From contig JASAND010026749.1 in the NCBI GenBank assembly GCA_030248195.1, positions 1 through 64,000 of the forward strand: 64,000 nucleotides of DNA, given 5' to 3'. This document shows, in pieces, positions 2,499 through 56,834 of the stretch. A model generated the notes under the pieces. It was not told the origin of the DNA and made no database searches. It saw nothing but the letters and a program-made list of their open reading frames with translations. Source of the DNA: Trissonchulus latispiculum (Eukaryota; Nematoda; Enoplea; Enoplida; Ironidae). Every line of letters starts with the position of its first letter. The stretch's first letter is position 1. Made by a program: the position numbers and the translations under genes.

Positions 2499-4222
2499 GC
2501 TAACAGTTAGAAGTTTGGAGAAGGCTGGGTTTTTCACTAGCAGTATTGTTTAAGGAGAGTTATGAATTAGCTGGGTTTAGTGATTGTGGGAAGTTTCAGC
2601 TCTATTGTCTTTTGTGGAAGGGCCACTATATTTTTGGTGCTTGCAGGTCTGGTTTGCCAAATTCTATTTTTGATGCTTGTTTAGTATCATTCTAATTTAG
2701 AGTAAATTTCAGTTCATTATTGAGTTTGCCTAAGTTTATCAGTAAATTGTTGCAGTCTTTTACACTTCTTTAGAGGTCAGTGTTCCATTTGTTTCCGACA
2801 TTGCACACCACCGGTATTCACTTGCAGTCTTAAGATATTGACTTTGAAGTAAAGCAGACAACGTAGTTTTATTACTCTCGTATAGTCAAACTTCACAGTG
2901 TTTTAACCATAGTCTAGATCACCAATTCATTAGGTATAATTGATATAGTCTTTAACAAAGCTGTGATTAGAATAGGGCGCGCCAATAGTAATTACTTGCA
3001 GCACATTTGAGAAAATACTGTCCTGGACATTGCCTCTGCTGCATGTATCGAACGTTGCATGTTAATCTAACCCAAAGACCAAAACCAGAGATCGCAAGCA
3101 GTAGTTCTATCTATCATCCATTATTCAGCGTCCCCACAATACCAACATTCTTTTGCTCAAAGAAGACAGCACATAAACAAACGGATACATTAATTTGTAC
3201 AGTCGAAATAATCGACTAACTATTAGGTTATCTCGTCACAAACTCAAATAAAGCAAAATATTTGTTTATCTACTTATTCATGTACGGTGTTGTTTTACTT
3301 GTGAACCACTTGTTGTTCAATTGTGCTTGCTACTTGCGCACATACTCAGACTGAACTGATTTACAAATTTCTTTAACGATGTAGCTAACATAAACTGGTA
3401 TAATTAAATTGCTAATTATATTTTATAATGATCATAATATTACCTTGAATTCTACGTGGAACAGTTTGTTGAACTATGAATTATTGAACGTCAAAGAAAT
3501 GGTTGTAATTGTTTAAAACTCTTTGCTTTTAGGCTTTTGGTCCTGCCAAGCGCTAAAATGGAAACTATTGGATGCCGTGGTTAACAGGTTTTGTATAGAA
3601 ACGTGCTGGACTAGGTTTTAGTAATATTTCGTATTATTTTATCGTTTATTATTTTAATACATTTGTACATTTCTGTACATTTCTGCATGGTGTTTTTTCT
3701 GCACTCTAATGCAAGTTATTCCTGTTCTTTTTAATTAACTAGTTGCTAGGTGGTAGGGTTCAGCTTTACGTGTATATTGAGATTATTTTTAAACGATATA
3801 TAAAGAAATACACTATGGACTCCATACCTTAGTTGAACTAAGGAAGCAACCTCTCCAGTGACGTACCAAGGCTACAAATTGGATACAGTCTGCAACAAAC
3901 GTTTCGTAGCTCGATGTACACCGAAACATAAACTTATGTTTATTCGTAAAGTATCATGTAAGATATGTTTACAGTAGCATTATAATAGCCACAATAGTAA
4001 TAATTTGTTGATTTGTTATTTTTTGTTCTAAAATTCCATAAAAACAAAACCGTTGCGATGCATATTGGCTGCCCCGAGAACAAGAATTCCAAGTCATACT
4101 AGATATGGCTGATAGAGGAGAATGTAACAGTTCCATACCAGTCTAGTACTGGTGACAACTTCCGAACAGAGACAGAAAATGTAAAGGAGATTTGTTCTAA
4201 TTAAGTTGCTAGACAGAAGCAC
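2499..4222. other. intergenic, 3' side of the first receptor gene
   Basis: AT-rich and without a credible gene. On the minus strand an AATAAA reads at 3944-3939, about 280 bases beyond the receptor stop codon, and is a candidate poly(A) signal. Confidence 0.4.
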
Positions 4223-5206
4223 TCAACAGTTGGTGGCTTGCAACTGTCTTATTACGGGTAACTGTATAGCAACAACTTGATTCCCTTCGATGCAGAACAG
4301 ATCCATTATTGACTTTCTAATCTCATGATTGCGAGTAAAATAGATGGCGATGTTGACAGCCGAGTTTAAGTTTAGTATTATCCAATTGGCTGGTACCAGT
4401 ATATCTATTACACTTTTAGAAACCCCAGCGGCCACACTAATCGATACAATAATCATAGGCAGTGCTTGTAGCAAAAACGTGCAAACGATCACAAATACCA
4501 GCATTTTCGTAATCTTGGCCTGTCGCTCCTTATTTTGTCGCAAAACATCAGAAAGAGGTCCGTCCACTTTGTAGTGCAAAATTATCATTGCACTGCTATA
4601 TACAATAACACTACATAGGGAAACAATGACCTGATACCAATTCCATAGTTGATAAAAACCTTCAGTTGTCCCCGAACTGGTCATGCAAATGTAAGACGCC
4701 TCTTTTGTAGGGGGCAAAAAGCCTGTTGTTATCATAGCGATTACCAGTAGAAAAAGTGCAAAACAAAATCCTAAAATGCAGATGACGATCACATGTTGGG
4801 CTGAAATAATGTTGTAATAAAATATACTAGTACAGGCAATTAATCTGTCAAGTGAAATAAGCAGCGTCATTGTGGCTACCCCGAAACCTCCGATTATCAG
4901 ACAGGGTATATGCAGTTTTGTAATGCAAAACCATCGCGTAACCATGAGATATGTTTTTCCTTCCAAAAGAGCGGTGGTTCTGTGAATACCAGCAGACAAC
5001 TGTCCCAGACCCATGAATAAGTCAGCGACTGCAAGTCCAAACGGCAAGCAGTATTCTTTGCGATACAAAGACTTTGTCCGCAGTATTGCCAACAATATCA
5101 AAACATTTCCTAGTACCTGAATGCAACCTTCCCCTATGTACACGCAAAATAGTGCCTGCAGTTCGGCTGTTGTTGCCGATCTCTCATAATTGGTCAAATT
5201 ATTCAT
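4223..5206 (-). CDS. rhodopsin-type seven-helix receptor, Srsx-like, paralogue 1
   Basis: A G-protein-coupled receptor of 327 residues in one uninterrupted exon, expected in the plasma membrane. Visible family marks are GN at 33-34 in helix 1, LAVAD at 58-62 in helix 2, the Cys94/Cys174 pair that normally bridges helix 3 and loop 2, DRL at 120-122 in place of DRY, LP at 249-250 in helix 6, and NSAVNIAIY at 281-289 in the NPxxY position. The frame is open for 25 more codons upstream, but the chosen Met aligns with the start of the paralogue at 8582-9565 and gives the same length. NNLTNYE near the N-terminus offers a possible glycosylation site. The ligand is unknown. Srsx is my reading of the overall pattern; another small rhodopsin subfamily is possible. 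Confidence 0.85.
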   Translation of the reverse strand: MNNLTNYERSATTAELQALFCVYIGEGCIQVLGNVLILLAILRTKSLYRKEYCLPFGLAVADLFMGLGQLSAGIHRTTALLEGKTYLMVTRWFCITKLHIPCLIIGGFGVATMTLLISLDRLIACTSIFYYNIISAQHVIVICILGFCFALFLLVIAMITTGFLPPTKEASYICMTSSGTTEGFYQLWNWYQVIVSLCSVIVYSSAMIILHYKVDGPLSDVLRQNKERQAKITKMLVFVIVCTFLLQALPMIIVSISVAAGVSKSVIDILVPANWIILNLNSAVNIAIYFTRNHEIRKSIMDLFCIEGNQVVAIQLPVIRQLQATNC

Positions 5207-5475
5207 GCTTTTTAAAAATTCCTTGAGTTTGTGAAATAACCAAAGTCCTGCTTTTATAGCAGTATATATGACAATTATCAAATGGCAGGAAACACTCCAG
5301 TTAAAAATAAAGAGGCTGGCGGAGATAATTTATTGAAAGAAATTATTTTAGAAAGTATCTGGGCTATGCTGCCAGCATGGAGTATGAACTTATATTTCAA
5401 TTTTCAAGCAAAGTTTTATATTCTTCTAGCTATCTGAATGCTTAGTGCAACTGGCGCAGATAGCTCCAAATTTTA
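5207..5475 (-). promoter_or_regulatory. 5' flank duplicated together with the receptor gene
   Basis: Segments here recur in order upstream of the second receptor (about 9566-9870). Examples are AGGAAACAC, the box around GGCGGAGATAA (TGACGGAGATAA in the other copy), and TATATTTCAATTTTCA. The duplication therefore included several hundred bases of upstream sequence, probably with the promoter. No TATA box or initiator can be named with confidence. Confidence 0.45.
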
Positions 5476-8328: not shown

Positions 8329-8581
8329 CCAGCTTGTGTAATACTACAATTTGAATGCAACGTCCTACAAGTATTCGTAACACAATGCACGCTGGAATTA
8401 TGCAGTTCTCTGTTTGTATTTCGCATAGAAGCAGGTAAGATACAATTCCATTATTAGAGTAAAATTGTAATATTTGTTAATTTGTGCATATCTGATATTA
8501 TATGGTAGCATCTCCGTTTCGAGCCTTATTGGCCAATCCGAAAATAACAAGTTTGTCTATGATATTGCAAATCCAAAAACC

Positions 8582-9565
8582 TCAAAAGCTAGTCGCCTGC
8601 AACTGCCTTATTATGGGCAACTGTATGGCGACAACTTGATTATCTTCGCTACAGAACAAATCCATTATTGACTTTCTGATTTCATGATTGCGAGTAAAAT
8701 AGATTGCAATGTTGACAGCCGAGTTTAAATTCAGTATAATCCAATTGGCTGGAACCAGTATATCTATTGCTCTTTTAGAAACCCCAGCGGCCACACTAAT
8801 CGATACAATTATCATAGGCAGTGCTTGTAGAAAAAACGTGCAGCCGATCACAAATACCAGCATTTTCGTAAGCTTGGCTTGCCTTTCCTTATTTTGTCGT
8901 AGAACTTCGGAAAGGGGTCCGTCAACTTTGTAGTGCAAAATGGTCATTGCACTGCTATAAACAATAGCACTGCATAAGGAAACAATTACCTGATACCAAA
9001 TCCATAGTTGATAAAATCCTTCAGTTGTTCCAGAACTGGTCATACAAATGTAGGAAACTTCTCTGGTTGGAGGCAGATAGCCTGTGGTTATCACTGCAAT
9101 TAGTAGTAGCAAAAGTGCAAAAGAAAATCCCAGCACGCAAATAACAATGATGTGCTTGGCTAAAATAATGTTGTAATAGAATATGCTAGTACAGGCAATT
9201 AATCTGTCAAGTGAAATAAGCAGCGTCATGGTGGGTACCCCGAAGCCACCTATTATTAAACAAGGTATATGCAGTTTACCAATGCAAAACCACCGCGTAA
9301 CCATTAGATTCATTTTTCCTTTTAAAAGAGCGATGGTTCTATGAATACCAGCGGACAACTGTCCCAGTCCCATAAATAAATCAGCGACTGCGAGTCCAAA
9401 GGGCAGACAATACTCTTTACGATGCAAATTCCTCGATCGCAATATTGCCAGCAATATCAAAGCATTTCCCAGCACTTGAATGCATCCTTCACCAATGTAC
9501 ACACTAAAAAACCCCAGTAGTTCATTTGATGTGGCTGCTTTCTCATACTTGGTTGAATTGTTCAT
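8582..9565 (-). CDS. rhodopsin-type seven-helix receptor, Srsx-like, paralogue 2
   Basis: A 327-residue single-exon receptor with the same length and family marks as paralogue 1: GN 33-34, LAVAD 58-62, Cys94 and Cys174, DRL 120-122, LP 249-250 and NSAVNIAIY 281-289. By direct count the two differ at 46 of 327 positions, and none of the marker residues changes. Differences cluster at the N-terminus (residues 4-20), in loop 1 (44-48), in the stretch before helix 3 (82-96) and in helix 4 (135-170). The second intracellular loop start, helix 7 and the C-terminal tail are almost fixed. Both copies therefore look functional and recently duplicated in tandem in the same orientation, about 3.4 kb apart. 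Confidence 0.85.
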   Translation of the reverse strand: MNNSTKYEKAATSNELLGFFSVYIGEGCIQVLGNALILLAILRSRNLHRKEYCLPFGLAVADLFMGLGQLSAGIHRTIALLKGKMNLMVTRWFCIGKLHIPCLIIGGFGVPTMTLLISLDRLIACTSIFYYNIILAKHIIVICVLGFSFALLLLLIAVITTGYLPPTREVSYICMTSSGTTEGFYQLWIWYQVIVSLCSAIVYSSAMTILHYKVDGPLSEVLRQNKERQAKLTKMLVFVIGCTFFLQALPMIIVSISVAAGVSKRAIDILVPANWIILNLNSAVNIAIYFTRNHEIRKSIMDLFCSEDNQVVAIQLPIIRQLQATSF

Positions 9566-10195
9566 GTTTTAAATATCCACGCAGTCGTGAAAATACATTT
9601 ATTCATTTATAGGTGTAAAAACAATTATGAAAATCCAGGAAACACCACAGTCAGAAATAAGGTGCCTGACGGAGATAAGTATTAGAAGTATTAGGTATTA
9701 GATAGAAATCATTTTAATATATATATTTATGCCATGCTAATACTAATACATATTTGTGCTATAATCACGGTACGTAGGGACAGACAGCATCGAAACTAGT
9801 CTATATTTCAATTTTCAGTGAAAGCTTTTATATACAGATAACTCAGTGCAATTGTCACAGAGGAAATCACGAAAGTGGTTAAGAGCAAATTTTTGAGTGA
9901 AACCACAACGTCACGGAGGTTTTTGCTTGATTAACTATGGACCTGGCAGAGGTACGGTTCCGACAGCGTTCGTCCGATAGGTCAAAGTCAATGGTGCCGA
10001 AAGCACGTTCCGAAAGAATATGTAGGAACAGAATACCGTTGCAATCCCATCATGGACATGCCAAGATGATAGCAAATAGAATCCTGATTAGACTATAGCA
10101 TCTGTGCCGAAAGCCAGTGTACCAACGAACAAAGCGTCTGCTGCCGTCGTCTTAGGTAGCCAGTCAAAAACTGAGACCACATGAGCTAGGTTCCT
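9566..10195. other. 5' flank of paralogue 2, then unassigned spacer
   Basis: About the first 300 bases correspond to the upstream flank of paralogue 1 (5207-5475). The remainder shows no gene. Confidence 0.4.
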
Positions 10196-20936: not shown

Positions 20937-20940
20937 AAAG

Positions 20941-21775
20941 TGTAGCAGACCTAGTAATTAGCTAGTTAGAAAATAAACAAAATTAGATAAAAACTCTTAA
21001 ATTTAGGATTTAGGTAAATCTATAAAATAAAGTTAAATAAGGAATCTTAGGTAACAAATAGTAAAGGTATACGGTAGTTAGCTAGGTACTGTAGGTAACC
21101 AGTTTATGTATTAATTGTTGTATTGTTAGTTAATAATAAAGTAATCTGTAATTGTTCTTGTCTGTAGTTAGTAATTCTGTATTGTCTTGTCCTAGAAGTT
21201 GTGTGTGTTAGCTTTGACCAAGTTAGGTTTTTTCTTGGAATTATTCCTTCTCTTTCTGTCAAAGTTAGAGCTAGAAACTGGCCAAAAGATTTATAGTTCA
21301 GTTAGAATTGGAAATTGGATTTGGGCTCTTTAGTTTATCAACTTGCCAGAAAATAGAAAGTTCTAGAAGCTTGCTTACGTCAATAGAAGGGCCAGAAAAG
21401 AGAAACCAAAAGTTAGATTACCTTAGAGGATTCTAGAAAGAAAATTGGAAACTATTTCTGGATTTGGGATAAATTGCTGGGTATTTCGTAATCGCCAAAG
21501 TCTTACGGTAGCCAGGAAAAGACAACTTTGTAATTCTATTTTGTTAGTTAGTCTCGGTGCTAGTTGCTGAAGAATAAAGTCGTGCTTGTGATTCTGCTCC
21601 GATTCTGTACGCGTAATCCTGTCTTGGTCATTAAAGCATCGTGTTGTGTATTAGTTTGCCTAGTAGCCGAAGACTCAGAAGAGAGTTAGAGCCTGAAGAG
21701 GCATACGAACTTTAACGAACTTTATCCACTGCGTTTTACTCTGCTACGTCGTTGGTCAGCCCACGGCCCGCGACA
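20941..21775 (+). repeat. 5' LTR
   Basis: 835 bp beginning TGTAGCAGACC and ending CGCGACA. AATAAA at 21573-21578 is a candidate polyadenylation signal. It differs from the 3' LTR at four positions that I could find. Confidence 0.9.
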
Positions 21776-21777
21776 TT

Positions 21778-21788
21778 TGGTAGCAGAG
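21778..21788 (+). promoter_or_regulatory. primer-binding site for initiator-methionine tRNA
   Basis: TGGTAGCAGAG, two bases after the LTR, is complementary to the 3' end CUCUGCUACCA of animal initiator tRNA-Met. It would prime minus-strand DNA synthesis. Confidence 0.75.
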
Positions 21789-21849
21789 CGTGGTTTGTCC
21801 GACACGCTCTGTTTACCACGCCATCAGTATTTCTATAATTATTGGAATC

Positions 21850-22345
21850 ATCTGCCGCGCACCGCCTGCGCTATCGCCTACGAACGTCTTTCGAATCATT
21901 GCCGCACAACGTTTGTGCTCCCATCGAACCGAACTTTGAACTTTCTCATCACTTTGGTCTTCCTGTCAGCGCATCTACGAACTCTAAAAACATTTGAACT
22001 TTTACAAGGTTCTTGCCGCGCAACGCTAGCGCAAACCGAACCTTGCTCCTGAACAATCATATATTCAGAACTTTTGCCTTGAAACTTGGGTTCTTGCGGC
22101 GCAACGTCAGCGCAACTGAACCCTTACCAATCAGTGAACTTTAACATTTGAACTTTTATTCCTGGAAGTTGGCTTGCCGCGCAACGTTAGCGCAACTGCC
22201 AACTAATTGACTGAACTTTCTGCCGCGCAACGTCAGCGCATTAGAAAGTTTGCCTGCCTGTGAACTTTGAACTTTTACGTGTCCAGCTACGGTCGGTTGA
22301 CTAGCCGCGCAACGCTCGCGCATCAGTCGACCTCCTACTTCGCCG
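21850..22345 (+). ncRNA. array of co-varying stem-loops in the retrotransposon leader
   Basis: Seven units share the core GCCGCGCAACGnnnGCGCA, and five are flanked by a perfect outer stem whose sequence differs each time. The stems are TTCGA/TCGAA (21890-21928), CAAGGTTC/GAACCTTG (22005-22045), GGGTTC/GAACCC (22088-22123), AGTTGGC/GCCAACT (22167-22204) and AACTTTC/GAAAGTT (22214-22250). A sixth, GGTTGACT/AGTCGACC with one G-U pair, is at 22295-22332. The inner GCGC/GCGC pair becomes GCAC/GTGC in the second unit, which is also compensatory. Units at 21854 and 22341 are degenerate. The spacers repeat TTGAACTTT. A role in packaging, dimerisation or translation is inferred only. Confidence 0.75.
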
Positions 22346-22349
22346 CGAA

Positions 22350-22781
22350 TTGTTAACGCCGTCGACGACGTTTTCCCTCCTTACGACCGTCGCTGTGGAT
22401 CCGTCTTCGTCGATTCCCTCGTACCCTTGGAATCTGCTTTTGCCGAACCGGGAAGCCTATCCTTTGCTGTTCCAGACTCCGCAATCACCTCCGATCGTCT
22501 ATTCTACGCCAATCGGTCCGTCCCTCCTATTTCCTCCTGCCGTGGTATCAGTAGTCAGCAACCCAGTCCTAACCCATTCCATCAGCTCCTTACAGGTTTT
22601 CCCCCCGACGAACTCTGTGATATCACATCAGCCCGTCCTCCCAGCTCCGCCTAGACCATCCACCTCAGTGTCCGCCTCAGATACTCATTGCCACCACTGT
22701 GAGCGGTTGCTCCGCCTGTTCAGAGAGGAACTCCGACACAGACGAATCCGAAGAGAGCCTACTGCTGAGACCAGTCTGTGA
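22350..22781 (+). other. Pro/Ser-rich open frame between leader and gag
   Basis: An open frame of 144 codons without an ATG, opening after a stop inside the last stem-loop. The translation is rich in Pro, Ser and Val and ends in a basic stretch with HCHHC. It matches no family I recognise. It may be a non-AUG leader product or chance; the higher GC content than its surroundings slightly favours something real. Confidence 0.25.
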
Positions 22782-22902
22782 GTATTGAGCCTTTAATTGA
22801 CTGAATTTAACGTATAATCAATCGTCTATGGACGCAGGTTATGAGTTTTGAATTTAATTGAGTAAGCTGGTAACCATTTAACAAACATAACGTGATCTCA
22901 GT

Positions 22903-25069
22903 ATGAGTAATCAAAACGTTAAGGACGAAAGTGATGACGAAGTTTTTGCTAGTGCTAATCCAGATATCGAGCGTTTAGATAGGCATTCGCGTGCTATAAA
23001 ATTACATGCTAAAATGCTAGAGGAATTAAGAAATGATATGAATGAGTTTGAAGACTTTACCTACGTCGCGTGATTTGCAAGAGTATCAAAATTTTCGAGA
23101 TCAATATAACCGGTTTCAAAAACAATATTTCGATAGTAATGGAGGTTTTGACTTAACCGCGGTTTCTATTTGTCCTACTAAAGCAGTTTCGTTACCTCAT
23201 GATACTTTGAGACCGAGCAAAATATTGAGGACTGGTTCAGAATTTTTAAATTAGTCGCGATAGCTCAAAATTGGGATAGCGATCGGCAATTAAAAATTTT
23301 GCCCGCATTTTTGAGAGACTATGCTCTGGATGTTTACACAAATTTACAGCCTTGTGAAAAGGGCAATATTGATACTTTGAACATGAACTTTGGGCGATAA
23401 GACACTTGAAGCCAGCAGAATCTGAACGATTTGCTAGTATGCAGTTGCATAGCAGGGTGCAAAAGCCTAATGAAAGTGTTCAAGACTTTGCGTACGCCAT
23501 TCAGAGGTTGGTTCAAAAAGCTTATCCAGGCATGCAGGAAGCAGCCGCTGCAAACTTGACTTTCAACAGTTTAATCAATGGTTTAAATCCTTATTACAAA
23601 AAGCAGCTCATTTTACAGAATCCACAAGATTTTACTGATGCTGTACAAAAAGCACGACAGTTAGAAGCTCTTGAAGGCTTGAATTCAAATTCGTTTGTAA
23701 ACTCTGCTTATGAAGTTTTTGCCTATGAAGCCACACCTGTGGAACGGCGTATGCAAGCCGCGGAAAATGAAAGCTTGGTTACCGAGTTTGGAAAGTTGGT
23801 TGAAGCAATAAAGCAGCAGCATGCAGAGGCAGTAGCACAGAATAAAAGGCAGGTTGAATTTCAACAAAAGGTAGAATCAAACATGGCAGATCTGCGCCAA
23901 GAAGTTAATAAACTTTCGAGTGCACATGATATTAGCTATGGTAGTGATTATAGAAACATTGCTCGTGAATTGGGATATAGTAATAACGGTAGCAAATTTC
24001 AGAATAGAAACAATGAGCAGGCAGGTTTGGCAACCCTCGAGAAAAAGGAAGGGGTTTTTCACAATCTTTTGGCAATCGATCGTCACGTAGATTTGACAGA
24101 AGACCTGTTTGTTTTTACTGCAATATGCAAGGACATTTGGCTGCGTCATGCCCCCAGCGTGCAGGTACACAGTTTCATGATCGACCTACAGTAAACCATT
24201 CGTTTAGACAGGACTATGGAAGAGTTTCTGCAGCTGTAGTTAACAGAGAGTCAACCATGCCTCCAACAGAAACGGTCTCTGCTTCCCACATACACTCCGA
24301 GCTTTCTGACTTGCGAATGAGTATTAAAGCCTTGCAAGATGCCACTCAGCTAATTGCTAAACAAAAGCAAGATTGCACTCAGTTGCAGAAAGATAATGAA
24401 GCGCTTTTTGAGCAAAATCAACGTTTGGCTCAACGTTTCTTTTCAGATTCTGAAACTGTTCCAAAAGTTCTTATAAATTCTGTGAAAGCAATGCAGTCTG
24501 AAAATGCTATTGCTAGAGTTGAGGTTAGCAGACGGCGCTTCCGTTCTCATGTTTCACATAACTTCCAATTTGGCAGAAAACGTAATGAGCTTATTAATGA
24601 AAGGAAAAAGCGGTGCGATAAAGAAAAGGAAGCGCAGATGACTTTAATACTTGACGACTTCAGTGAATCTTTGAAAAAGAAAGGGCAAAGTTTCCACGAA
24701 AAACGAGATCAGTGGATGAAAGTTTTTATGGACTATTTTAAAGCAACATTATTTAAGTTGGCAGATGTTTCTTCTTTAGGAGCGCGTTTGTTTTTGATTC
24801 TTCTGTGCGCACTAGTCATGCAAGGAAATGTGAGTGCAATACCTATGAAAGAGAAGCAACTAGATCATCAATTTTACAGTGGAAAGCCAATTCGGAAACG
24901 GTTTAATTCTGGTAACCGCCTCGAGCTATTTAAAACTTTTGTTAAGCATGCTATAGACAAGTTGTCTTGCTTACTTTCAACGAAACTTAGTCAATATTGT
25001 TACAACCATAACCACCTTTCCTGCAGTACCAATTTCTGCCTAAAGAGGAGATACAGATCTATTTATTAA
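22903..25069 (+). pseudogene. retrotransposon gag, broken by several frameshifts
   Basis: The likely start is the ATG at 22903, opening an acidic N-terminus. Homology then moves between frames near 23045, 23205, 23370 and 24025. The gag (capsid) signature is visible around 23225-23600: a tryptophan-containing block, then ELWAIRHLKP, then a helical stretch with QRLVQKAYPGM. A CCHC zinc knuckle (CFYCNMQGHLAASC) lies at 24110-24151, preceded by an Arg/Ser-rich linker. The last open frame runs to 25069. After the knuckle it has a long predicted coiled coil, a strongly basic block, and a hydrophobic segment at about 24781-24837 followed by a soluble tail. No pol follows. The intact protein would coat and package element RNA in the cytoplasm. 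Confidence 0.75.
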
Positions 25070-28000
25070 TTTGAATTTTGGTCGTGGATTTCAGAAATCA
25101 ATTTTTGAACAATTTCTAGGAAAGTTCAGAGACTTGTTTTTCTGCTACTCTGCTGCCAGTAAGCTGAATTACTGGGTCCTCGTTAAGATATAAGCCTACT
25201 AACTGAGAAAACTCTTCGGTGAGTGCACCACTGGAGAGCGTCACCAGTAAAAGGCTTTGGTTTTGTAACATGGTTTTTTTTCGTAAGTGAAATGTAGCAG
25301 TGAAACAAGATCATGGTTTCTTAGATATATTTTAAGTGGGTTATACAATGCTGTATTCTCATACATGAGAAGCATGAAAAGCAGCATGAGTTAGTTGAGT
25401 AAGCCCAAAGTTTCGTTTGTTTTAAATCGTTCCGATAAAACGTGTCTAGAGGAATAGATCTAAATTCGGTTTTAATTTTCATTCAGTTTAATTTGACTAG
25501 TAGGCGATACAAGAAACAAGTTTGACTGTTATTTTGACTGCACAGATAATAACCGTTAAACAAAGTTTGGGTTTAAAGTTTTATTTTTGTTAGATTTCGT
25601 TAAGGCTGGCATAAGACCAGTCCAGAGCTTTCAATTTGCGAAAAGTAGTTTTAATGAAGTTCGTGAACTAGTTTTGGCACTAAGACAGTTGCGGCTGGCT
25701 GTCAGACTGAAAAGTAATCTTGAACTACAGGATCAATGATAGTTTAATGGCGAGAGCAATTTTATTAAACCACTTGCGAAAATGTTCCCTAGTTGCAAGT
25801 ATTTCTTACAAAGGATCCAGGATTCAAAGTTCGTTTAGTCAACTAAAGGTTGTGGATTCGATTCCCACCTAGGACTGGAATATTCTGGTCCAGGTGTGGT
25901 AGTGACATATGATCGGTTTGTTCTTTCAGTCCTTTGCTTGGCCCCTTTTCCTTTTTCTGCAGTAAATTAAATCATTTTTCTTTGTCAAATTTCGTCGGAT
26001 TATGTTAGATTAGCTTATTCTGAAAATTTGGAAATACTCTTTCGCAGTCAACTACAGGAATGAAACATTTTTTATTGACAAATCACACTAAGCTCTTACG
26101 TTGACGCACTGGGCTATAACTGCTGGGACGTTGGGCATTGCTTCTTTGTCATTAGCTCAAGAAGATCTGGTCAAAATATAGAGTGATCCCCTGAACTATG
26201 CATACTTTTAACAAATCACCAACCTTGAGAAAGTTATCACCAGAATTTAATACAATCTATAGTAGTCGGTATACTACTGGTCTTCTGGTTTTCCCAAAGG
26301 ATGTTATCTGCCAAGTATTTAGGAACTTTGTGAACCTCTGAGACTCTACGATCATAAACTTCCGAACTTTTAGGGTAACCTGCGGCTTCGGCGAGTCTGA
26401 GTTATTTTTTAAGTATATCTGCGCGCGATCACAACAACCTCAGGAAAATAGCGGGTTTTTCTCAAGTTTACCCCTAGTCTGCTTTTGCTGTAGTATCTTG
26501 CCTTGGTTCTAGTCTGGTACAGCTTGGTACTATGGTACAGCTTTAACATTAAACTGAAATTTTGCAGTGCGGAAACTTAGGTCAAAACACGGATTTCCCT
26601 ATATTCGTGCAAGCAATTAATTAGCAAGCTGCTTTCACAATCATTTTGGGATGATTGCCGAGGTTTCTTTTTGGGGTTTTGAGTTTAGGCATTTTATTAG
26701 TGGGAACAAAGTGCGAAACTTTTGACGAAAATCCGAATCTGATTACATTTTTTTTAAAAATTTGAGCTTGGTTTTTATTGAACAACATGGAAAAGATGGC
26801 CCTGAGGAAGAGGTTTCTTCAAACGCCTAAACGGGTCGTTTTAGTTAGCTTTCTCAGAAACTCTCAGCTTAGAGAAACTTCGAAACTTAGAGAAACGTAT
26901 GTTAAAACTAATTTTTTTTGTTATCTCATGTCAAAGTCGAACAATTCATTGAGACAGCCGTATTCTGCCTAGTTATAGCGCAGGCATTCTCAGTTTTACA
27001 ATAATATAAACATTAATGTTGTGCTTCGAAAATTGAGTACATTACACAACTTCGAATTTCCCTGCGATCACGGGGACCTTAAAGATTTGCGTAATCGGTT
27101 CCCGAAAACTGAAACAAACGAATTTCCGTGATGCTGCCTGCGATGTGATGCTCGTTTTTGTCGAAATTGCAAAATTGACGGATCTGGGTACAGTTTATGT
27201 CTGTCATCTTTCAAACCAAAATAAGCTATCGTATTCAAGTCATTAAAAAAGATTTAAGAAGTGAGCATAGCAACCGCATTGGACCGAACTAGTAGCACAT
27301 TATTGTGAAGCTGAAACTGTGTGAAACTGAAACTTGAATCTGTTCTTCATCATTTCCCAATTTATAGATGATTGCATTTATATATTCTAATTTTTCAGCG
27401 CTGTTTTCTTATTTTCGTGAACCCAAGCATAATCGGAAAGTATTTTGAACTTTATAAGGTGGTTCAAATTTTGCATACAGTTAAAGTTCCCAATTATGAC
27501 ATCTACTTTCTATGCTGCTAAAGAGCTAAATTGGAGTGGAGGTCGCCATCTACTATAGCCCAGCAGTTGGTCCTTTGGTCTGGTCGATGCAGACTTACAC
27601 AAATTTTTAAGTAATTAATTTGTGTAAGTTATTATTTTAAGTAATCTTTAAGTTAAATGAGAACCACATCATTTTGCGGTATGAGAAATAAATCTTACCT
27701 CACTGGTGTCCACAACAGGCAGTGATAAAAACGCTATGTATAGTAATCATAGCCTACTGTACACAACATCAGCAACTAAACTATTTTGGAAAAACGTAGA
27801 ACTTCCACCCACATGCAGTCGCATACTGATTTCAAACTTAAGATTACGGCAACCGCAGTCTTCTTCGAGATAAAATTTCTCTGAAACTCGGCCATTACGA
27901 TTTTAAACTAGAACACAGGGCTACAGAATTGCTCCGATTACATCTACTTTCCACCCATGCTGCGAGTTGGACGTAACCTGCTGTTATAAGTCCGAAATAT

Positions 28001-28310
28001 TTACAGCAATGATTAGACAGACACACTACAACCGCACAAATTCTTTATTTCACAAATTTCAACTTCCAATAGCTAAAGCTTAATAACAAATTAAATAGTA
28101 CAGTACAGGTAAACGAAACGAAGCCTATAATCTATATATAGATATATATCTACGATTTCAGTTTTGCTATCATAGGATAGCTCTTGTTTATCACCGTTGC
28201 TACTATATTATTAACTAGGCACTTGCTGTAGAATAGCATTCTTCACTTGTTATAACTATTTTTGTCCCGCGCCTACGCTTTTCTTTTCAAATTGGAGGAC
28301 CAATTTTCGC
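25070..28310. other. non-coding internal region of the LTR element
   Basis: More than 3 kb without a frame above about 65 codons and without recognisable pol motifs. A hairpin CAATCAT/ATGATTG lies near 26638-26656. A T-arm-like GGATTCGATTCCCAC lies near 25854 but has no tRNA body. Confidence 0.55.
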
Positions 28311-28322
28311 GAAGGGGGGAGA
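28311..28322 (+). promoter_or_regulatory. polypurine tract
   Basis: GAAGGGGGGAGA, two bases before the 3' LTR, at the expected position for the plus-strand primer. Confidence 0.8.
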
Positions 28323-28324
28323 TA

Positions 28325-29159
28325 TGTAGCAGACCTAGCAATTAGCTAGTTAGAAAATAAACAAAATTAGATAAAAACTCTTAAATTTAGGATTTAGGTA
28401 AATCTATAAAATAAAGTTAAATAAGGAATCTTAGGTAACAAATAGTAAAGGTATACGGTAGTTAGCTAGGTACTGTAGGTAACTAGTTTATGTATTAATT
28501 GTTGTATTGTTAGTTAATAATAAAGTAATCTGTAATTGTTCTTGTCTGTAGTTAGTAATTCTGTATTGTCTTGTCCTAGAAGTTGTGTGTGTTAACTTTG
28601 ACCAAGTTAGGTTCTTTCTTGGAATTATTCCTTCTCTTTCTGTCAAAGTTAGAGCTAGAAACTGGCCAAAAGATTTATAGTTCAGTTAGAATTGGAAATT
28701 GGATTTGGGCTCTTTAGTTTATCAACTTGCCAGAAAATAGAAAGTTCTAGAAGCTTGCTTACGTCAATAGAAGGGCCAGAAAAGAGAAACCAAAAGTTAG
28801 ATTACCTTAGAGGATTCTAGAAAGAAAATTGGAAACTATTTCTGGATTTGGGATAAATTGCTGGGTATTTCGTAATCGCCAAAGTCTTACGGTAGCCAGG
28901 AAAAGACAACTTTGTAATTCTATTTTGTTAGTTAGTCTCGGTGCTAGTTGCTGAAGAATAAAGTCGTGCTTGTGATTCTGCTCCGATTCTGTACGCGTAA
29001 TCCTGTCTTGGTCATTAAAGCATCGTGTTGTGTATTAGTTTGCCTAGTAGCCGAAGACTCAGAAGAGAGTTAGAGCCTGAAGAGGCATACGAACTTTAAC
29101 GAACTTTATCCACTGCGTTTTACTCTGCTACGTCGTTGGTCAGCCCACGGCCCGCGACA
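28325..29159 (+). repeat. 3' LTR
   Basis: Same length and ends as the 5' LTR, followed by the AAAG target duplication. Confidence 0.9.
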
Positions 29160-29516
29160 AAAGTTCAGTTTTCCGGGCTGCTCTTGAAAATGTCTGCTCC
29201 GGGTAACCGTAGCTCCACGTCCATTAACTTAACCTCGCCAAGTTCGTAAACAAACGATTAGTTATCATAAAACGTTTGGTCAAGTTTGTTCCACAAGAAA
29301 CTGCCGTTTGTTCACCGCATAATATTGAGAAGTTTGCAAAAAACTAGACCTTAGAGCTATCTTCATTCTAGCCTTCGCCAAATTAGTATTTTTAGAAATT
29401 TTGATACCATTATAAAGCTATCGTTTGATCACACGCCGCATTTATTTGGTCACGCTCATTTCTTTGAGAATTACGAGAAAGTTATTTCTATATTTACAAC
29501 TTTTGTTTTAGGGTGA

Positions 29517-30047: not shown

Positions 30048-31043
30048 GGTGTATATGTCGCGTTAAATCAGACGGCCTGTGTAGCCAACTTGTTTTAACG
30101 TTAAATTACGGGCCGCGTGATTTAACATTACACTAAGCGGCCTTTGCATTTTGACCTGTATTGTTGTCATTCATATGATAACTATGTATGTGTGTAAGGG
30201 TTGTCAATTGGTCTCCTGCTGGACAACATTTACGTAGGGGTTTTATTATGCAGTCATTAGTAAATTCACTCTACACTAGATGAAATATATTACGTATGAA
30301 TGACCTTGCAGTCTAATTAAAGATGCATTACAAAGACAAACACTGCTTCAGAACAATTTGTTAAGAAGTGTTCAGTGCCAATATTATGCAATCTTTGTAA
30401 CTATTCTTTATCTTTACTTAATAATTTTTCAGTAGGTAATTTAATACAATAACCACATATATAATTTAGTAAAAAAGCATTAAGAACGAAGATAAGTTAT
30501 AAACCAAAAGATGTACATGCTTAGTGTATATCAATTTTTCTAAATAGACGGTTTTAGATAAATGTTACCAGATTTATTAATTTATTTAATTTAGCTAAGC
30601 TCATCGATTTAAAGTTATTTTAAATATTTTAAATTGATATTGATATCAAATTGCCTACTGAAAAATTATTAAGTAAAGATAAAGAATAGTTACAAAGATT
30701 GCACAATATTGGCACTGAACACTTCTTAACAAATTGTTCTGAAGCAGTGTTTGTCTTTGTAATGCATCTTTAATTAGACAGCAAGGTCATTCATACGTAA
30801 TACATTTCATCTAGTGTAGAGTGAATTTACTAATGACTGCATAATAAAACCCCTACGTAAATGTTGTCCAGCAGGAGACCACTTGACAACCCTTACACAC
30901 ATACATAGTTATCATATGGATGACAACAATAGAGGTCAAAATGCAAAGGCCGCTTAGTGTAGTGTTAAATCACGCGGCCAGTTAATTTAACGTTAAAACA
31001 AGTTGGCTACACAGGCCGTCTGATTTAACGCGACATATATACC
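30048..31043. mobile_element. fold-back element with ~400-bp arms
   Basis: The left arm from GGTGTATATGTCGCGTTAAA is mirrored to 31043. The mirror continues inwards to about 30445/30643, where CAGTAGG...TTTAATA meets CCTACTG. A 200-bp AT-rich spacer lies between the arms. The arms differ only at scattered positions. No target duplication was identified. Confidence 0.8.
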
Positions 31044-51388: not shown

Positions 51389-51806
51389 CTGGGCTTATTC
51401 TAGGGATTTTTTCTTGGGGGGGGCTTCTTGGGGGGGGCCCCCCCCCAAAGGTCCGAGGGGCAAGGAATTTTTGGGGGGGGGGGCGAAAATTTTTCGAAAA
51501 ATATGCTAAAAATAGCGCTATTTTTCTGGCATATACTATAAAAGTTGATTTTCATAGCAAAAATAAGCAGATTTAGTGTTGAAAAGGGCAAAAATTGAGT
51601 AAAAATCTCCGGCGAAGCCGGAAAATTTTTGAAAATTTGGCCTTCTGAGCGATTTTTTCAGGGCAAAAGTTGGTACCAAAAGGGGCACCCACTTTTTTGG
51701 GGGGGGGGGGGCGGTTTTTTTTGGGGGGGGGGGGGGGAACGATTTTTGGGGGGGAAGGGTGTTTATGGGGGGGGCCCCATCCCCCCCCCCACTAGAATAA
51801 GCCCAG
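51389..51806. mobile_element. G/C-tract element with CTGGGCTTATTCTAG ends
   Basis: Perfect 15-bp inverted ends inside a TATATA context. G-runs follow on the left and C-runs on the right. The internal CTCCGGCGAAGCCGGA hairpin is near 51608. A mirror copy begins at about 63690 and runs off the window. Confidence 0.8.
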
Positions 51807-52321
51807 TATATATATGTTCGGGCTGCGGCTATATGCTACTGTGCATGTTTTAATTTTTTGGTCTATTAAATTCATATTTATTTGTTTGGACAGCTGTTTT
51901 CGTATTCAGAGTGGAAGAACACATACACGTATATATATAATATGCCGGTGAGAATGTTGCTTTTGTCATCCTCGATGGTTTTTTGATTACTCATTTTTGA
52001 TAGACAGGTTTATAAACTGCTATGATGAATATGGCGCTATGATTACACAGAGGAGATTGTGCTAAGTCCCATATATATATATATGTCACAAAGCTTTACG
52101 TCAGATTATATCATTGTGTTATTGTCACCCGCCGCCAGCTACCTGACTCTACGTATCCGTTCTACTACATAGACTCTGCCTATCTTTCTGCTGCCTATAC
52201 GTTGAGTTTATTTTATTTGATCCGTGTCATTACTTTTTGGTGCTTTACTTCCATTTACTTATTTTCTTTGTGATTTTGTACGACAATTTTTACGAACTAT
52301 TTTTTTACGTATATAGTAATT

Positions 52322-52529
52322 ATGGATGGTCATAATAATTATTATTATGATACGGGCCCTATGCCTACGTCCTCGACATCGAATGGGGGACCGGTCAGTC
52401 CGAACTATTGTCGATATCCTCCGCCGACCGACAACGGGCACTATTCGCCTGCCGGTGTCTCCAGTACCCCTGATCCGCAGGAAACGGAATATTTGACCGT
52501 CTATGAACAGAATCTGGAACGATCAAAAG
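52322..52529 (+). CDS. probable first coding exon of an unidentified gene, left copy
   Basis: Starts at an ATG and ends at a good donor (AAAAG then GTACAC), phase 1, with 69 codons plus one base. The product is rich in Tyr, Pro, Ser and Asn (YYYDTGPMPTSSTSNGG near the start) and ends with a more regular stretch, ETEYLTVYEQNLERSK. It shows no domain I can name; disordered N-termini of this kind are common in transcription regulators, which is only a suggestion. The base composition is clearly richer in GC than the flanks. No second exon was found downstream: the next 5 kb is transposons and then the mirror arm. If transcribed, the gene is truncated or its remainder lies elsewhere. Confidence 0.5.
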
Positions 52530-53101
52530 GTACACATACCTATACACACATACGTATATACCAGTGGCGCAGCCAAGACTTTGTGACGGAGCATGCGGAC
52601 ATAGGCGATATCCAAGGGGGGGGGGGTTGGTTGGAACATCCCATTTTCGTTTGACCCCTCTGGATTTTATGGGGAGATAATAAAAGATTGAGCTCTTTTC
52701 GGATATTTGTTTAGGAGGAGTTTGAAAGTGGAGAGCTTCGCTCCCCTACACGGGAGGAAGTGGGGGATGTACCAAAAATGGGGATGCCAAGCAAGATCAA
52801 GGTACAAATACACATAAATATTCATCCTAAAAGCTAAAATGCGCTAATACAAAGTCTATAAATTAGCTAAAAATTGAGAAACGTTTGAAAATTTGACCTC
52901 GCAAACTTGTTCGACACGTTTGGGCGACAGCAAACATGCTACAAAGTGTACTAAAAACTGCAAGTTTTTAGTGTATTAAACTAAAAATATTTTGTGCCTG
53001 CAGTTCATGTCTGCATCAATTTTATCAGTTTGTTCGAGCCTGCAACGCTCGCGACCCAAAAACGGCTCGCTGCCAAACATGGCCCAAAAATGGACCCCTC
53101 C
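52530..53101. mobile_element. element end CAGTGGCGCAGCCAAGAC and G-tract
   Basis: CAGTGGCGCAGCCAAGAC begins near 52563, right after the exon's donor. The only matching opposite end is its mirror near 62920. GGGGGGGG follows near 52617. No gene. Confidence 0.4.
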
Positions 53102-54347
53102 TTGGGGGTCGGTTTTTGGCCGATTTTTCGACCATCTCCGATTTTGCTCATTTTCACATATTTTGTAGTCCCAATAGATTCTCGAAACAAGACCAGAGCG
53201 TTTTGCGTAATATCGCTTCTATCGTGCTGCAGAGCCCTTCAAAGGTGACCTCGGCATGTGTTAAACATAGGAAAATGAACAAGTTAGATTAAAAAGTTTG
53301 TGGCAGAAATTTTTTTCGCTGCATGCAAGATACGGCGCTACAACCTTTTTGTTCATGTTAGGAACATATCGGAGAGTGCAAATAACCCTTCTGGTTTAAT
53401 TCTGTTGTGTGTAGGATTTTTGGCGATTTTTCAAAGTCAAAGTTTTGTAAAAATGGTGCTTTTTGCACCACGAAAAACAGGACCAGCGAAACATTTTCGC
53501 CTCTCCTACACGATTGGCAAAAGCTACAGAAATCGTTTATAAATAGTTGCACTCTACGCATACACAGAATTCTTATGACAGTAGTTTCAAATTTGTACCA
53601 TTTGTAGTGCTCTCAGAAAACTTGCCACAAAATGTGCTAATTTTGCCAAAAATCATGATTTTTCATAATTTTCATGTTCTTTAATAATTTCTCACTCGTT
53701 ACCCACTCGAAAGTCACCAAAATTGGCACATACAACTCTCAATGCCTGCCGGACACTATGCCTGCCGGACACTATGGTAAAGGCAAATGCTTCAAGGTAG
53801 AACTTTTCTGTCGTGTCGGCCCCTTTGATCTCTTATAGGTCACAAAAGTCAATTTTTCAAATTTCCAAAATATAGACAAATTGGTTATCATTCGATAGCT
53901 ATTAATGAGCTGAACAACTTTTCTAATAGAACTATGTATATATCTGAAATGTAGTATCTGAAAGTTAGAGCAGGTTAAAGTTTGAGGACACAGTGAGCTG
54001 GAAAAGGCTCAGTTCACAATTGAAGAATGCACTGTGAACGAATGGCTGGATATCTCGGAGTGGTTTTAGTATTAAAATATTAGCCAACCCACAGAATTAA
54101 TTTGCCAATTTGCCAATTTAATTAGTTGACCTAAATTTCGCTGCCGTTTTCTCTCATCATGATCTTGGATGGCAAATCACAGTGATTTTCAAGTTTTCCA
54201 ACTTTATAGCTCAATATCTCTTCTCTGCCACAGTTTGAAATCGAACTGTAATGTTTTGTCTTGTTTTTGAGAACATATGTACCTATATTGTGTGTGAAAA
54301 TGAGCGAAATCCGTGACTATCGATTTTGACCCAAAGCGACCCCCCCC
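53102..54347. mobile_element. relative of the TTAA-flanked element, copy B
   Basis: The right end is a C-run followed by TTAA (54348-54351). The left end is CTTGGGGGTCGGTTTTTGG, where TTAA is degraded. Shares TTTTCGACCATCTCCGAT, CATGTGTTAAACATAGG and TGTGAAAATGAGCGAAATCC with copy A (1230-2494). Confidence 0.65.
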
Positions 54348-54575
54348 TTAAGTTTGGAATAGGCGGATAATCGGATATCATCATCCGGATATCCGTTAAC
54401 GCAAATTTCATCGTAATTTGAGCTGCCGACCAACAATACGTACCTGCCCAGAACGAATCACCACCTTACGGAAACTTCATCTAAAATTCCAGCCAAAACT
54501 TTTTCGCAAAATCCCTTTCAAAGAAGCATTTTGAAGATCCTGTTGTTTTGTTTAGGTATTTTACACGCGGTAGCA

Positions 54576-55129
54576 CCGGCGGAGCCAGGATTTCGTGACG
54601 GGGGAGGGGCGGAGCCCCCCAGAAGTTGAAGAAATTTTTTGTTTCTGCATTAAAATCGGTCTTCGGATCTTTAATTCTTTTTATACTGAAGAACTGAACA
54701 ATTTTTTCAAATTCTTGACATTTTTACGCAAAAATGGTAATTTTCTCCGAAAAATCGGATGCATTTCAAGCTTTTTCTTCACAAATGCAATATATAAATA
54801 TGCGGTTAAAAAGTAGAATATTCGCGCCGACGGAGCGAAATGTTTTGGTTTTTTGCCCTTTTTCCTCTTTCTCTTCTTAATTTTTCCTACTTTCGAATCG
54901 CGACGGGGGGCGCCCCCCTGCGCGGTAGGTATATAAGCTTAGGAAATTTTTAAAAATTATGAATTTTGATTAATTTCTGCAGTTTAAATTCAAACTTAGA
55001 CGGCGACGGCGCAAAATTTTTGCTTTTCTTCTTGGTCTGCTTTGTAAAAACTTTTTTCCCTCCGAATCCTGACGGGGCATGCGGCCGCATGCCCCGCATG
55101 CCCCGCATGCCCCCTGGCTGCGCCCCTGG
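54576..55129. mobile_element. inverted-repeat element with GGCGGAGCCAGG ends
   Basis: CCGGCGGAGCCAGGATTT at the left and CCTGGCTGCGCCCCTGG at the right are imperfect inverted repeats of the common GGCGnAGCCAGG type. A 22-bp perfect palindrome at 55074-55095 centred on GCGGCCGC and tandem GCATGCCCC units lie near the right end. The mirror copy is at about 60340-60905. Confidence 0.65.
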
Positions 55130-55144
55130 TATATACATACTTAT

Positions 55145-55180
55145 ATATCATAGGGGTCGCGGCAGCGACCCCTATAATAT
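55145..55180. repeat. terminal hairpin of the second giant fold-back, left
   Basis: ATAGGGGTCGC/GCGACCCCTAT around GGCA, lengthened by AT pairs with one mismatch, then TAATATGTGTG. The mirror at about 60285-60318 is partly degraded. Confidence 0.85.
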
Positions 55181-55839
55181 GTGTGAAAAGTGGCTGGAGA
55201 CAGTGTAAAATAAGCTGCGCAGAAGCTGCACAAAATCCTGCGCAGACCCTGCACAGATTTCATGCGCAAATTGTAGAGCACATCGAGGTTAGTATGTCTG
55301 TGAAGTTTCAGCCCCGTATCACTTACCGTTAAAAAGTTGCGCCCCGGACCGGTTATGGCGGCGATGTTTTTTTTTCCGGTTTCTCCTATTTGATGGTTGT
55401 ATTGTACATAATGTTCGCCGCTTTCACGTGATCTGCAGCGGTGGGCCAACCTAAAGGGCTATGGGGTCTAGTAGTACCCTCTAAAGAATTTAAGAATCAC
55501 AACTTTTTTTGCGCCGCAGCTGCGCCACAGCGCCGCAGTGGCGCGCAAAGTCGGCTCATAGCGAAAAGTGACCATTTTTGTGGTCGTCGCTCAGGTCGAA
55601 CGTTACGAGCTGGAGCTGATTTCTTTTTTATATTCAGAAATTACATTTATTGAACTAACTAACGGTCCAGGTTGCGTTTCTCTATCACTTCCCTAGCGAC
55701 CACAGTGGCCCGTCAAAGATGGCGAAAATTCGAAAAATGAAAAATCGAAATTTCTCGCTATCTATTTAAGTTTGAACGCTCAAATCTTCCATACAATGGT
55801 TTTCTGGCACGGAGAATCGATTCCCGCAGTCAGTTTTAC

Positions 55840-56215: not shown

Positions 56216-56234
56216 GTCAGTCGGGTAGTGGAGG

Positions 56235-56640: not shown

Positions 56641-56834
56641 GCCAAATAACGTCACGTGCCCATGAAACTTTTGTCTTTACTTCTTCAACCGGAATTTAAA
56701 GGATATATATACCTATTTATATTTATTATATATTTAAAGGATATTTAAAGGATATATATATACGATACAGCCAACACACACATATTATCCTCTTTTGTGC
56801 GGAGCATTTTTGTTACTTGTATATATATATATAT

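What the first reader, a model, noticed from the sequence alone, without database searches (positions are those of the whole stretch)
21850..22345. Co-varying stem-loop array in a retrotransposon leader
Six units keep a core GCCGCGCAACGnnnGCGCA inside outer stems of five to eight pairs. The stem sequences differ completely between units yet stay complementary: TTCGA/TCGAA, CAAGGTTC/GAACCTTG, GGGTTC/GAACCC, AGTTGGC/GCCAACT, AACTTTC/GAAAGTT and GGTTGACT/AGTCGACC. One unit also changes the inner GCGC/GCGC pair to GCAC/GTGC. Covariation between tandem copies in one molecule is strong evidence that RNA structure is selected. It may serve packaging, dimerisation, gag binding or cap-independent translation.
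Basis: seen in the sequence. Interest (0 to 1): 0.88.

Follow-up and report, generated by a model that had tools for sequence, protein, structure and literature searches.

The report
Covarying RNA hairpin array in retrotransposon
A virus-like jumping gene in an animal genome carries a row of RNA hairpins whose pairing is kept by evolution although the letters change, sitting just before a small protein-coding stretch that has no normal start signal.

Summary
Window 20941-29159 is an LTR retrotransposon; its leader has seven copies of a hairpin head (GCCGCGCAACGnnnGCGC). Five (22005-22332) are closed by unrelated but complementary outer stems, far beyond chance: 33 bp against 9.5±2.3 in 5,000 shuffles; 37/37 pairs in register against 7-21 when slid. 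A sixth claimed stem (21890) is weak. I fetched 44 related loci from the host genome (734 Mb, unnamed). Orthologous stems covary between families A, B and C: C-G>U·G>U-A, G-C>G·U>A-U, A-U>U-A. RNA pairing is therefore under selection. The array is absent from the gag-related families F and G (0 of 19 leaders). It ends just before a conserved leader ORF (ORF0; dN/dS 0.21-0.36) in a stretch of about 1 kb without AUG; family F has a similar ORF with an ordinary AUG (13 of 17). Best reading: a multivalent protein-binding (packaging-type) array in a leader scanned by ribosomes, with ORF0 started at a non-AUG codon as in RTBV. Structure and ORF0 coding are shown; the array's function is inferred. 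Main rival: the array promotes ORF0 translation.

The parts
20941..21775 (+). 5' LTR (TG...CA); flanked by 4-bp target duplication AAAG (20937-20940 and 29160-29163)
28325..29159 (+). 3' LTR, 99.5% identical to the 5' LTR (4 substitutions, no indels)
21778..21818 (+). primer binding site (21778-21795, initiator-Met-like, from recall) inside a 15-bp hairpin whose 3' arm resembles the tRNA 3' end
   Evidence: the region around it is 85-93% identical in most family B copies
21854..21872 (+). unit U1: head only, no outer stem
21890..21928 (+). unit U2: head with inner GCAC/GTGC; claimed 5-bp outer stem is weak
22005..22045 (+). hairpin U3 (8-bp outer stem), pair probability 0.97-1.0
   Evidence: covariation across families
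22088..22123 (+). hairpin U4 (6-bp outer stem)
22167..22204 (+). hairpin U5 (7-bp outer stem)
22213..22251 (+). hairpin U6 (10-bp outer stem with G·U ends; 5' arm contains one GAACTTT)
22295..22332 (+). hairpin U7 (8-bp outer stem with one U·G)
21931..22275 (+). nine GAACTTT heptamers, eight of them between hairpins and one in the arm of U6; two more in the LTR end (21707, 21717)
22305..22781 (+). ORF0: stop-free frame of 158 codons with no ATG in any frame; conserved protein part from about 22389 (GTCGCTGTGG; candidate GUG start 22395) to TGA at 22779; C-terminus ..THCHHCERLLRLFREELRHRRIRREPTAETSL
22903..25069 (+). gag remnant in several frames (start ATG 22903; zinc knuckle in the 24017-25069 frame; signal-peptide-like stretch near its end)
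   Evidence: a 726-aa open frame in the copy L110
28310..28324 (+). polypurine tract before the 3' LTR

Best explanation
The array is a cis-acting RNA element of the genomic/messenger RNA of a Ty3/gypsy-type LTR retrotransposon: a row of near-identical hairpin heads (asymmetric GCC internal loop, GCGC stem, AACGYYN loop) on stems that are conserved mainly in being paired, spaced by GAACUUU motifs. It most likely works as a multivalent docking site for the element's own RNA-binding protein (the nucleocapsid zinc knuckle of Gag, or the arginine-rich ORF0 protein) and so marks the full-length RNA for assembly into particles, as packaging signals between PBS and gag do. The same leader is scanned by ribosomes: it is kept free of AUG, some ribosomes start ORF0 at a non-AUG codon (candidate GUG in GUCGCUGUGG) just after the array, and the rest go on to gag. 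Shown: the hairpins by sequence, their covariation, their restriction to one clade among the leaders examined, the coding nature of ORF0, and the AUG avoidance. Inferred: the binding protein, packaging, scanning, and the start codon.
For: Structure. In the + strand all five hairpins have mean pair probability 0.97 or more in each of four contexts. In the - strand the centroid keeps three of the five (U3, U4, U6), while U5 and U7 pair with each other; together with G·U pairs on the + strand this favours the + RNA. Covariation between orthologous units of families A, B and C: U3 pair 8 C-G>U-A, U3 pair 7 A-U>U-A, U4 pair 1 C-G>U·G>U-A, U5 pair 6 G-C>G·U>A-U, U5 pair 7 A-U>U-A in one copy; one B copy also has U3 pair 6 A-U>G-C. 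Between A and the C copy L103, 5 left and 5 right changes fall in the same 5 of 21 pairs, P 4.9e-5; between A and L104 4 of 6 changed pairs changed on both sides, P 0.004. Among 17 family A copies and one A2 copy, outer stems vary less (30/1293) and inner stems less still (9/691) than the other spacer positions (136/2922). Place and company: between PBS and gag; Gag with weak CCHC and Ty3_capsid matches below the curated cut-offs and a near-cut-off Retrotrans_gag match; gag A vs B dN/dS 0.17. The window copy has gag in pieces and no recognised pol, yet its LTRs are 99.5% identical, so it probably moved in trans with this leader. Scanning and ORF0: 0 AUG in 21776-22777 against 9.5±2.5 expected; 0 against 8.2-14.7 in four further A, B and C leaders; ORF0 dN/dS 0.21-0.36 in frame against about 0.8-2.3 in shifted frames.
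Against: No binding or packaging data. Families F and G have gag and PBS but no such array (0 of 19 leaders), so gag of this lineage does not need it in general. A vs B alone shows only 1 double change in 4 changed pairs (P 0.27), B vs C likewise (0.27). Family C rests on three copies, and two of them have a broken pair in U3 or U4; the one D copy scored for U3 is broken too. Within family A the stem changes are mostly single breaks (28 of 975 cells unpaired). GAACUUU is only about half unpaired in the predicted fold (0.45-0.79, and 0.03 for the one in U6). The array was gained on the same branch on which ORF0 appears to have lost its AUG, which fits a translation role at least as well. U1 and U2 lack reliable outer stems.
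Confidence: 0.42

Rival explanations
1. The array is a translation element: it delays or places ribosomes so that ORF0 starts at a non-AUG codon about 60 nt downstream (internal entry, shunting, or enhanced near-cognate initiation).
For: The array lies directly 5' of ORF0. Array-bearing families lack an ORF0 AUG, whereas 13 of 17 family F copies with a PBS have a similar ORF starting with AUG 41-118 nt after the PBS. The 10-mer GTCGCTGTGG at the candidate start is kept in A, B and C. There is precedent for a structured leader with a non-AUG ORF and AUG-less following ORF in RTBV (PMC5902531, passages).
Against: The array itself is AUG-free, which fits scanning through it rather than entry behind it. 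Structure that helps a weak start codon is expected downstream of the codon, not upstream (PMC5902531, passage). The co-occurrence with loss of the AUG is a single event on one branch, and homology of ORF0 to the family F ORF is only suggestive.
Confidence: 0.28
2. The array is a nuclear export or RNA-fate element (constitutive-transport-like), with repeated internal loops bound by a host factor.
For: Repeated hairpins with a conserved internal loop and free stem sequence are the layout of such elements (recalled); the leader has possible splice signals around 22778-22901 (sequence), so unspliced RNA may need help.
Against: No known RNA family matched (Rfam: 0 matches in the window); it lies at the 5' end of the RNA; no host factor is known.
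Confidence: 0.13
3. The heads are DNA-level binding sites (insulator- or enhancer-like repeats in a 5' leader, as in Drosophila gypsy), and the stems are by-products.
For: Tandem short repeats in retrotransposon leaders can be protein-binding DNA (recalled: Su(Hw) sites of gypsy). The head is partly palindromic.
Against: Does not explain complementary stems of unrelated sequence, nor G·U intermediates on one strand.
Confidence: 0.05
4. The perfect stems arise by template switching that repairs quasi-palindromes during reverse transcription, without selection on RNA.
For: Reverse transcription and hairpins could create perfect arms (general knowledge, no call).
Against: Stepwise change through G·U (U4 pair 1, U5 pair 6) between families is not what one-step templated repair gives; stems vary less than spacers.
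Confidence: 0.05

Closest known systems
Retroviral and Ty3-type 5' leader packaging/dimerisation signals (Psi, DIS)
   Same: Structured RNA between PBS and gag in an LTR element with a CCHC-type Gag; several stem-loops.
   Different: Here a row of near-identical heads in tandem with paired but sequence-free stems and GAACUUU spacers; no binding data; no general loop palindrome, unlike the Ty3 dimer palindrome (PMC11381356, abstract).
RTBV/CaMV leader translation (shunting, non-AUG ORF I, leaky scanning)
   Same: Long structured leader, first ORF without AUG, AUG-free stretch leading to the next ORF (PMC5902531, passages).
   Different: No short AUG uORF before the structure and no single large stem-loop here; animal Ty3/gypsy-type element, not a plant pararetrovirus. 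Two short AUG frames lie between ORF0 and gag in the window.
MLV glyco-Gag (CUG-initiated leader ORF)
   Same: Non-AUG coding in the leader upstream of gag AUG (PMC5778647, passages).
   Different: MLV's extends gag in frame; ORF0 ends at its own stop before gag.
TR-GAG (gag-only non-autonomous LTR elements)
   Same: Eleven A and B copies listed have gag frames of 712-742 aa (one with an internal TAG); in the two looked at closely (L108 with a 475-aa frame, L110 with 726 aa) no further frame of 100 aa or more matched Pfam.
   Different: The ten TR-GAG papers listed are about plants (listing only); here a relative with pol exists in family B (L131).

Membership tests
Ty3/gypsy-type LTR retrotransposon | LTRs TG..CA, short target duplication, PBS, polypurine tract | tested here: met
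   tRNA identity of the PBS from recall, the tRNA search did not complete
Ty3/gypsy-type LTR retrotransposon | PR-RT-RH-IN order in pol | tested here: met
   met in the related family B copy L131 (six pieces scanned apart); not in the window copy itself: none of 10 ORF pieces matched Pfam
Retroviral-type packaging signal | RNA structure between PBS and gag | tested here: met
   (prediction and covariation, no probing)
Retroviral-type packaging signal | specific binding by own Gag/nucleocapsid and need for encapsidation | not testable with these tools
   needs bench work
Kissing-loop dimer site | self-complementary apical loop | tested here: not met
   ACGT in 4 of 7 loops only; loops AACGCTA, AACGCTC and ACCGCCT hold none
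Known Rfam RNA family | match to a covariance model at its gathering score | tested here: not met
   0 matches in 64 kb
Protein-coding ORF (ORF0) | purifying selection in one frame | tested here: met
   dN/dS 0.21-0.36 in 5 comparisons, shifted frames about 0.8-2.3
Non-AUG-initiated ORF | no AUG in frame and no splice route to one | tested here: inconclusive
   no ATG between 21106 and 22828; no AG between 22326 and 22454 in the window, so no acceptor just before the conserved part (read); an AG does lie there in most B copies; transcripts not available

The most novel reading that the evidence does not exclude
A clade of animal Ty3/gypsy-type elements replaced the AUG of a conserved leader protein (ORF0) by a tandem array of structured RNA modules that drives AUG-independent initiation; the number of modules varies between families, and the ORF0 protein, with its CxxC and arginine-rich end, may bind the array in turn and switch the RNA from translation to packaging.
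Probability: 0.15. Interest if true: 0.87.

Novelty: new variant of a known kind. Interest (0 to 1): 0.66.

Why it matters
Covariation inside one array and between families gives unusually direct evidence that a retrotransposon RNA structure is selected, without any probing data, and yields a defined module (head, internal loop, spacer motif) that can be tested with short synthetic RNAs. It also points to a conserved accessory ORF with no AUG next to it, which annotation by ATG-started ORFs misses, and to a clade in which gain of the array and apparent loss of the AUG fall on the same branch. That makes a question about how retroelement RNAs are divided between translation and packaging testable.

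Tried and rejected
Public collections: the core in 2.9 million viral contigs gave 55 stretches with one match each, none in tandem; 54 of them served as a null set. Gag, a neighbouring GPCR and ORF0 found no relative at E 1e-3 in the 5.8-billion protein set, which seems to hold few animal proteins; gag also had no relative in viral contigs. Rfam: nothing. Nine answered paper searches listed no paper whose title or abstract opening speaks of such an array; I saw passages only of PMC5778647, PMC5902531 and PMC5035971, one hit in the reference list of PMC4974528, and the outline with abstract of PMC11381356. Dimerisation by palindromic loops: rejected as general (4 of 7 loops). U1, U2 and the degenerate head near 22342 as full members: rejected, no reliable outer stem. 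Homology of ORF0 to the AUG-started ORF of family F: only suggestive (hhalign score 18.1 against a maximum of 13.3 in 20 column shuffles, 16 columns, probability 1.3%). The putative leader intron 22778-22901 (GTGAGT..AG): I did not see its donor in the family B copy read (L090), so it is not relied on. The ORF0 search of the own genome did not complete. Host species: not identified.

Full report
What the locus is. Window 20941-29159 is an LTR retrotransposon: two 835-nt LTRs with 831 of 835 identical positions, target duplication AAAG, a PBS at 21778 that looks initiator-Met-like (recall), and a purine tract before the 3' LTR. Its gag is in pieces (frames between 22891 and 25069), with a zinc knuckle (weak, E 0.013). 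None of 10 ORF pieces between 25044 and 28080 matched Pfam.

The observation. The head GCCGCGCAACGnnnGCGC occurs seven times on the + strand of the leader. Five units (U3-U7) have outer stems of 6-10 bp, G·U included, that differ in sequence but are complementary. Against dinucleotide shuffles of the flanks the summed Watson-Crick stem of the five is 33 against 9.5±2.3, maximum 20 of 5,000; with G·U 39 against 13.2±3.0, maximum 27. As an outside null, 54 usable chance occurrences of the head in 55 viral contigs do not exceed 3 Watson-Crick pairs in register; with G·U one reaches 5 and one 7. Sliding the partner by 1-3 bases drops pairing from 37 of 37 to 7-21. Pair types at each of the six innermost positions number 2 to 4 over the five units. 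In the + strand each of the five forms with mean probability 0.97-1.0 in four sequence contexts. In the - strand the centroid still holds three of them (U3, U4, U6), while U5 and U7 pair with each other. The 496-nt stretch as a whole is unremarkable (z -1.31). Two of the seven units do not have a reliable outer stem.

Other copies. The leader found 42 matches in its own genome, itself included. The head with up to one mismatch occurs 144 times in the genome, against 1 for the reversed control pattern. A second query with a family B leader gave 41 matches and brought in more distant copies. I fetched 44 loci besides the window and grouped them by similarity and by eye as A (17 loci), A2 (2), B (19), C (3), D (2) and E (1). 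In all 17 loci L064-L080 (16 A, one A2) there is an additional head just 5' of U3, in some with changed letters; in the window a 10-nt deletion has cut it (compare). So the number of units varies.

Covariation between families. From 45 sequences, 39 rows were obtained for U3, 40 for U4 in two layouts and 37 for U5; three rows (two of U4, one of U5) are out of register through an indel or a false match and are not used. A mostly carries U3 CAAGGTTC/GAACCTTG, B CTAGGTTC/GAACCTAG, and C TTAGGTTC/GAACCTAA (two of three; the third has one mismatch). U4 runs GGGTTC/GAACCC (A), GGGTTT/GAACCC with U·G (B), GGGTTT/AAACCC (two of three C copies; the third has U·G and one mismatch). U5 runs AGTTGGC/GCCAACT (A), TGTTGGC/GCCAATT with G·U and a U-U mismatch at the end (most B), TATTGGC/GCCAATC (two C) or ..ATA (one C). 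The one D copy scored for U3 is broken. Between A and C copy L103 all 5 left and 5 right changes fall in the same five of 21 pairs (hypergeometric 4.9e-5), and four of five stay paired. Between A and L104 four of six changed pairs changed on both sides (0.004). A vs B alone and B vs C alone are not significant (0.27). Among 17 family A copies (window included) and one A2 copy, stem changes are mostly single ones, as in dead copies: 947 of 975 cells paired, 51 gap cells set aside. Yet stems vary less than spacers (outer 30/1293, inner 9/691, other spacer 136/2922; all). G·U intermediates on the + strand point to the RNA. A covariance model of the five window units, which match it by construction, found 60 matches in 40 sources at E up to 0.01, all in the window and in array families, and none in the 19 F and G leaders given to it.

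Which clade has it. The gag piece finds 141 places in the genome, a lower bound. I fetched 20 regions outside A-E; 19 of them hold a PBS, and none of the 20 holds the head. In a gag tree A/B/C form a clade (support 0.98); with G they form a fully supported group (1.00) apart from F (midpoint root). The array is thus a derived feature of one clade among the families seen. A family B copy (L131) has a 2640-aa frame with gag, protease, RT, RNase H and integrase, in Ty3/gypsy order (pieces scanned apart), so the clade includes a copy with pol. Eleven A and B copies have gag frames of 712-742 aa. Gag A against B (L110, L108; 440 codons) has dN 0.126 and dS 0.740.

ORF0, a second finding. The leader has no ATG on the + strand between 21106 and 22828, the longest such stretch of the window. 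In 21776-22777 there are 0, against 9.5±2.5 expected, while CAT occurs 16 times. Among 32 array-family leaders where both ends could be placed, 23 have none and 9 have 1-8 (counted). Inside lies a frame open from 22305 to 22781 whose protein is conserved in A, B and C from about VAV (22389) to, in A and B, PTAETS(L/V), including THCHHCERLLRLFREELRRRR (motif found in 37 of 48 sequences examined, three of them repeat fetches of the same copies; in several copies the frame is broken). dN/dS is 0.27, 0.21, 0.31, 0.29 and 0.36 in five comparisons; shifted frames give about 0.8-2.3. B has a stop codon just upstream, so the start must lie in a short interval; the one near-cognate codon that I see shared by A, B and C is GTG in GTCGCTGTGG (22389-22398), with G at -3 and +4. 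There is no AG between 22326 and 22454 in the window, so no splice acceptor lies just before the conserved part there; most B copies do have an AG in that place, so a spliced AUG exon is not excluded. In family F, 13 of 17 leaders with a PBS have a proline-rich ORF with a CxxC motif in the same place that does begin with ATG (a 14th ORF, in L128, does not resemble it). Its homology to ORF0 is only suggestive. Five F leaders tested are also poor in ATG (2-4 against 11-12.7 expected). In the two G leaders I found neither ORF0 nor array, and they keep 10 and 9 ATGs between PBS and gag (counted).

How it most likely works. A conserved head on stems that are free to change is the signature of recognition by a protein or by another RNA, several sites in a row mean multivalency, and the place between PBS and gag is where LTR elements keep packaging and dimerisation signals (PMC5035971, passages; Ty3 dimer palindrome in PMC11381356, abstract). 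The window copy lost gag and pol yet inserted recently, which fits movement in trans with the leader as the kept part. I therefore rate a Gag- or ORF0-binding packaging array first (0.42). The AUG-free leader and ORF0 fit scanning with a non-AUG start and leakage to gag; the closest precedent is RTBV, whose ORF I starts at AUU and whose first ORFs lack internal AUGs (PMC5902531, passages), and MLV glyco-Gag from CUG (PMC5778647, passages). Because the array and the missing AUG fall on the same branch, a direct role of the array in ORF0 translation is the strongest rival (0.28).

Limits. All covariation comes from one genome and rests for family C on three copies. Family borders were drawn by similarity and by eye. 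Start sites of transcription and translation are unknown. The tRNA identity of the PBS, the insulator example and the transport-element comparison are recalled. No paper listed by the nine answered searches describes such an array by title or abstract opening, but the library holds open-licence papers only.

Noticed in passing
L131 (C10583) and L132 (C8813): In a family B relative (L131) one frame of 2640 aa holds gag, then a stretch weakly resembling class III viral fusion glycoproteins (Monjiviricetes_fusion E 3e-4, below its cut-off), then protease, RT, RNase H and integrase. In a family F copy (L132, 2598-aa frame, two pieces scanned) the same family matches at E 2e-8 and BDV_G at 2e-4, and integrase follows later. 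So an envelope-like part seems to lie between gag and pol. Pieces were scanned apart, nothing restored.
   Followed up: partly
21778-21818; L111:1292-1354: The PBS sits in a 15-bp hairpin whose other arm resembles the tRNA 3' end; in the window and in family B copy L090 the arm is downstream of the PBS, in family F copy L111 upstream. A self-priming or primer-gating role is conceivable.
   Followed up: partly
21707-21723 and 21931-22275: GAACTTT occurs 11 times on the + strand of the LTR end and leader (9 of them in 345 nt), against about 17 expected in the whole window on both strands; five copies in the family B leader L090.
   Followed up: partly
L113:1838-1905, L117:1774-1824: Two family F leaders have their own tandem 17-mers (TGTGATTAGTTTGAAC-like) between ORF0 and gag.
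   Followed up: no
51496-64000: Very large inverted repeat: arms of about 4.4 kb, 93% identical, around a palindrome at 56721-58461.
   Followed up: no
30048-31043: Foldback-like inverted repeat with 344-nt arms, 97% complementary.
   Followed up: no
4222-5328 and 8581-9678: Two Srsx-type GPCR genes, each an uninterrupted frame, 83% identical at DNA level, on the - strand.
   Followed up: no
L109:2389-3774: A protein-kinase frame (Pfam Pkinase E 2e-20) lies inside or next to a family B copy on C7089, in the same direction.
   Followed up: no
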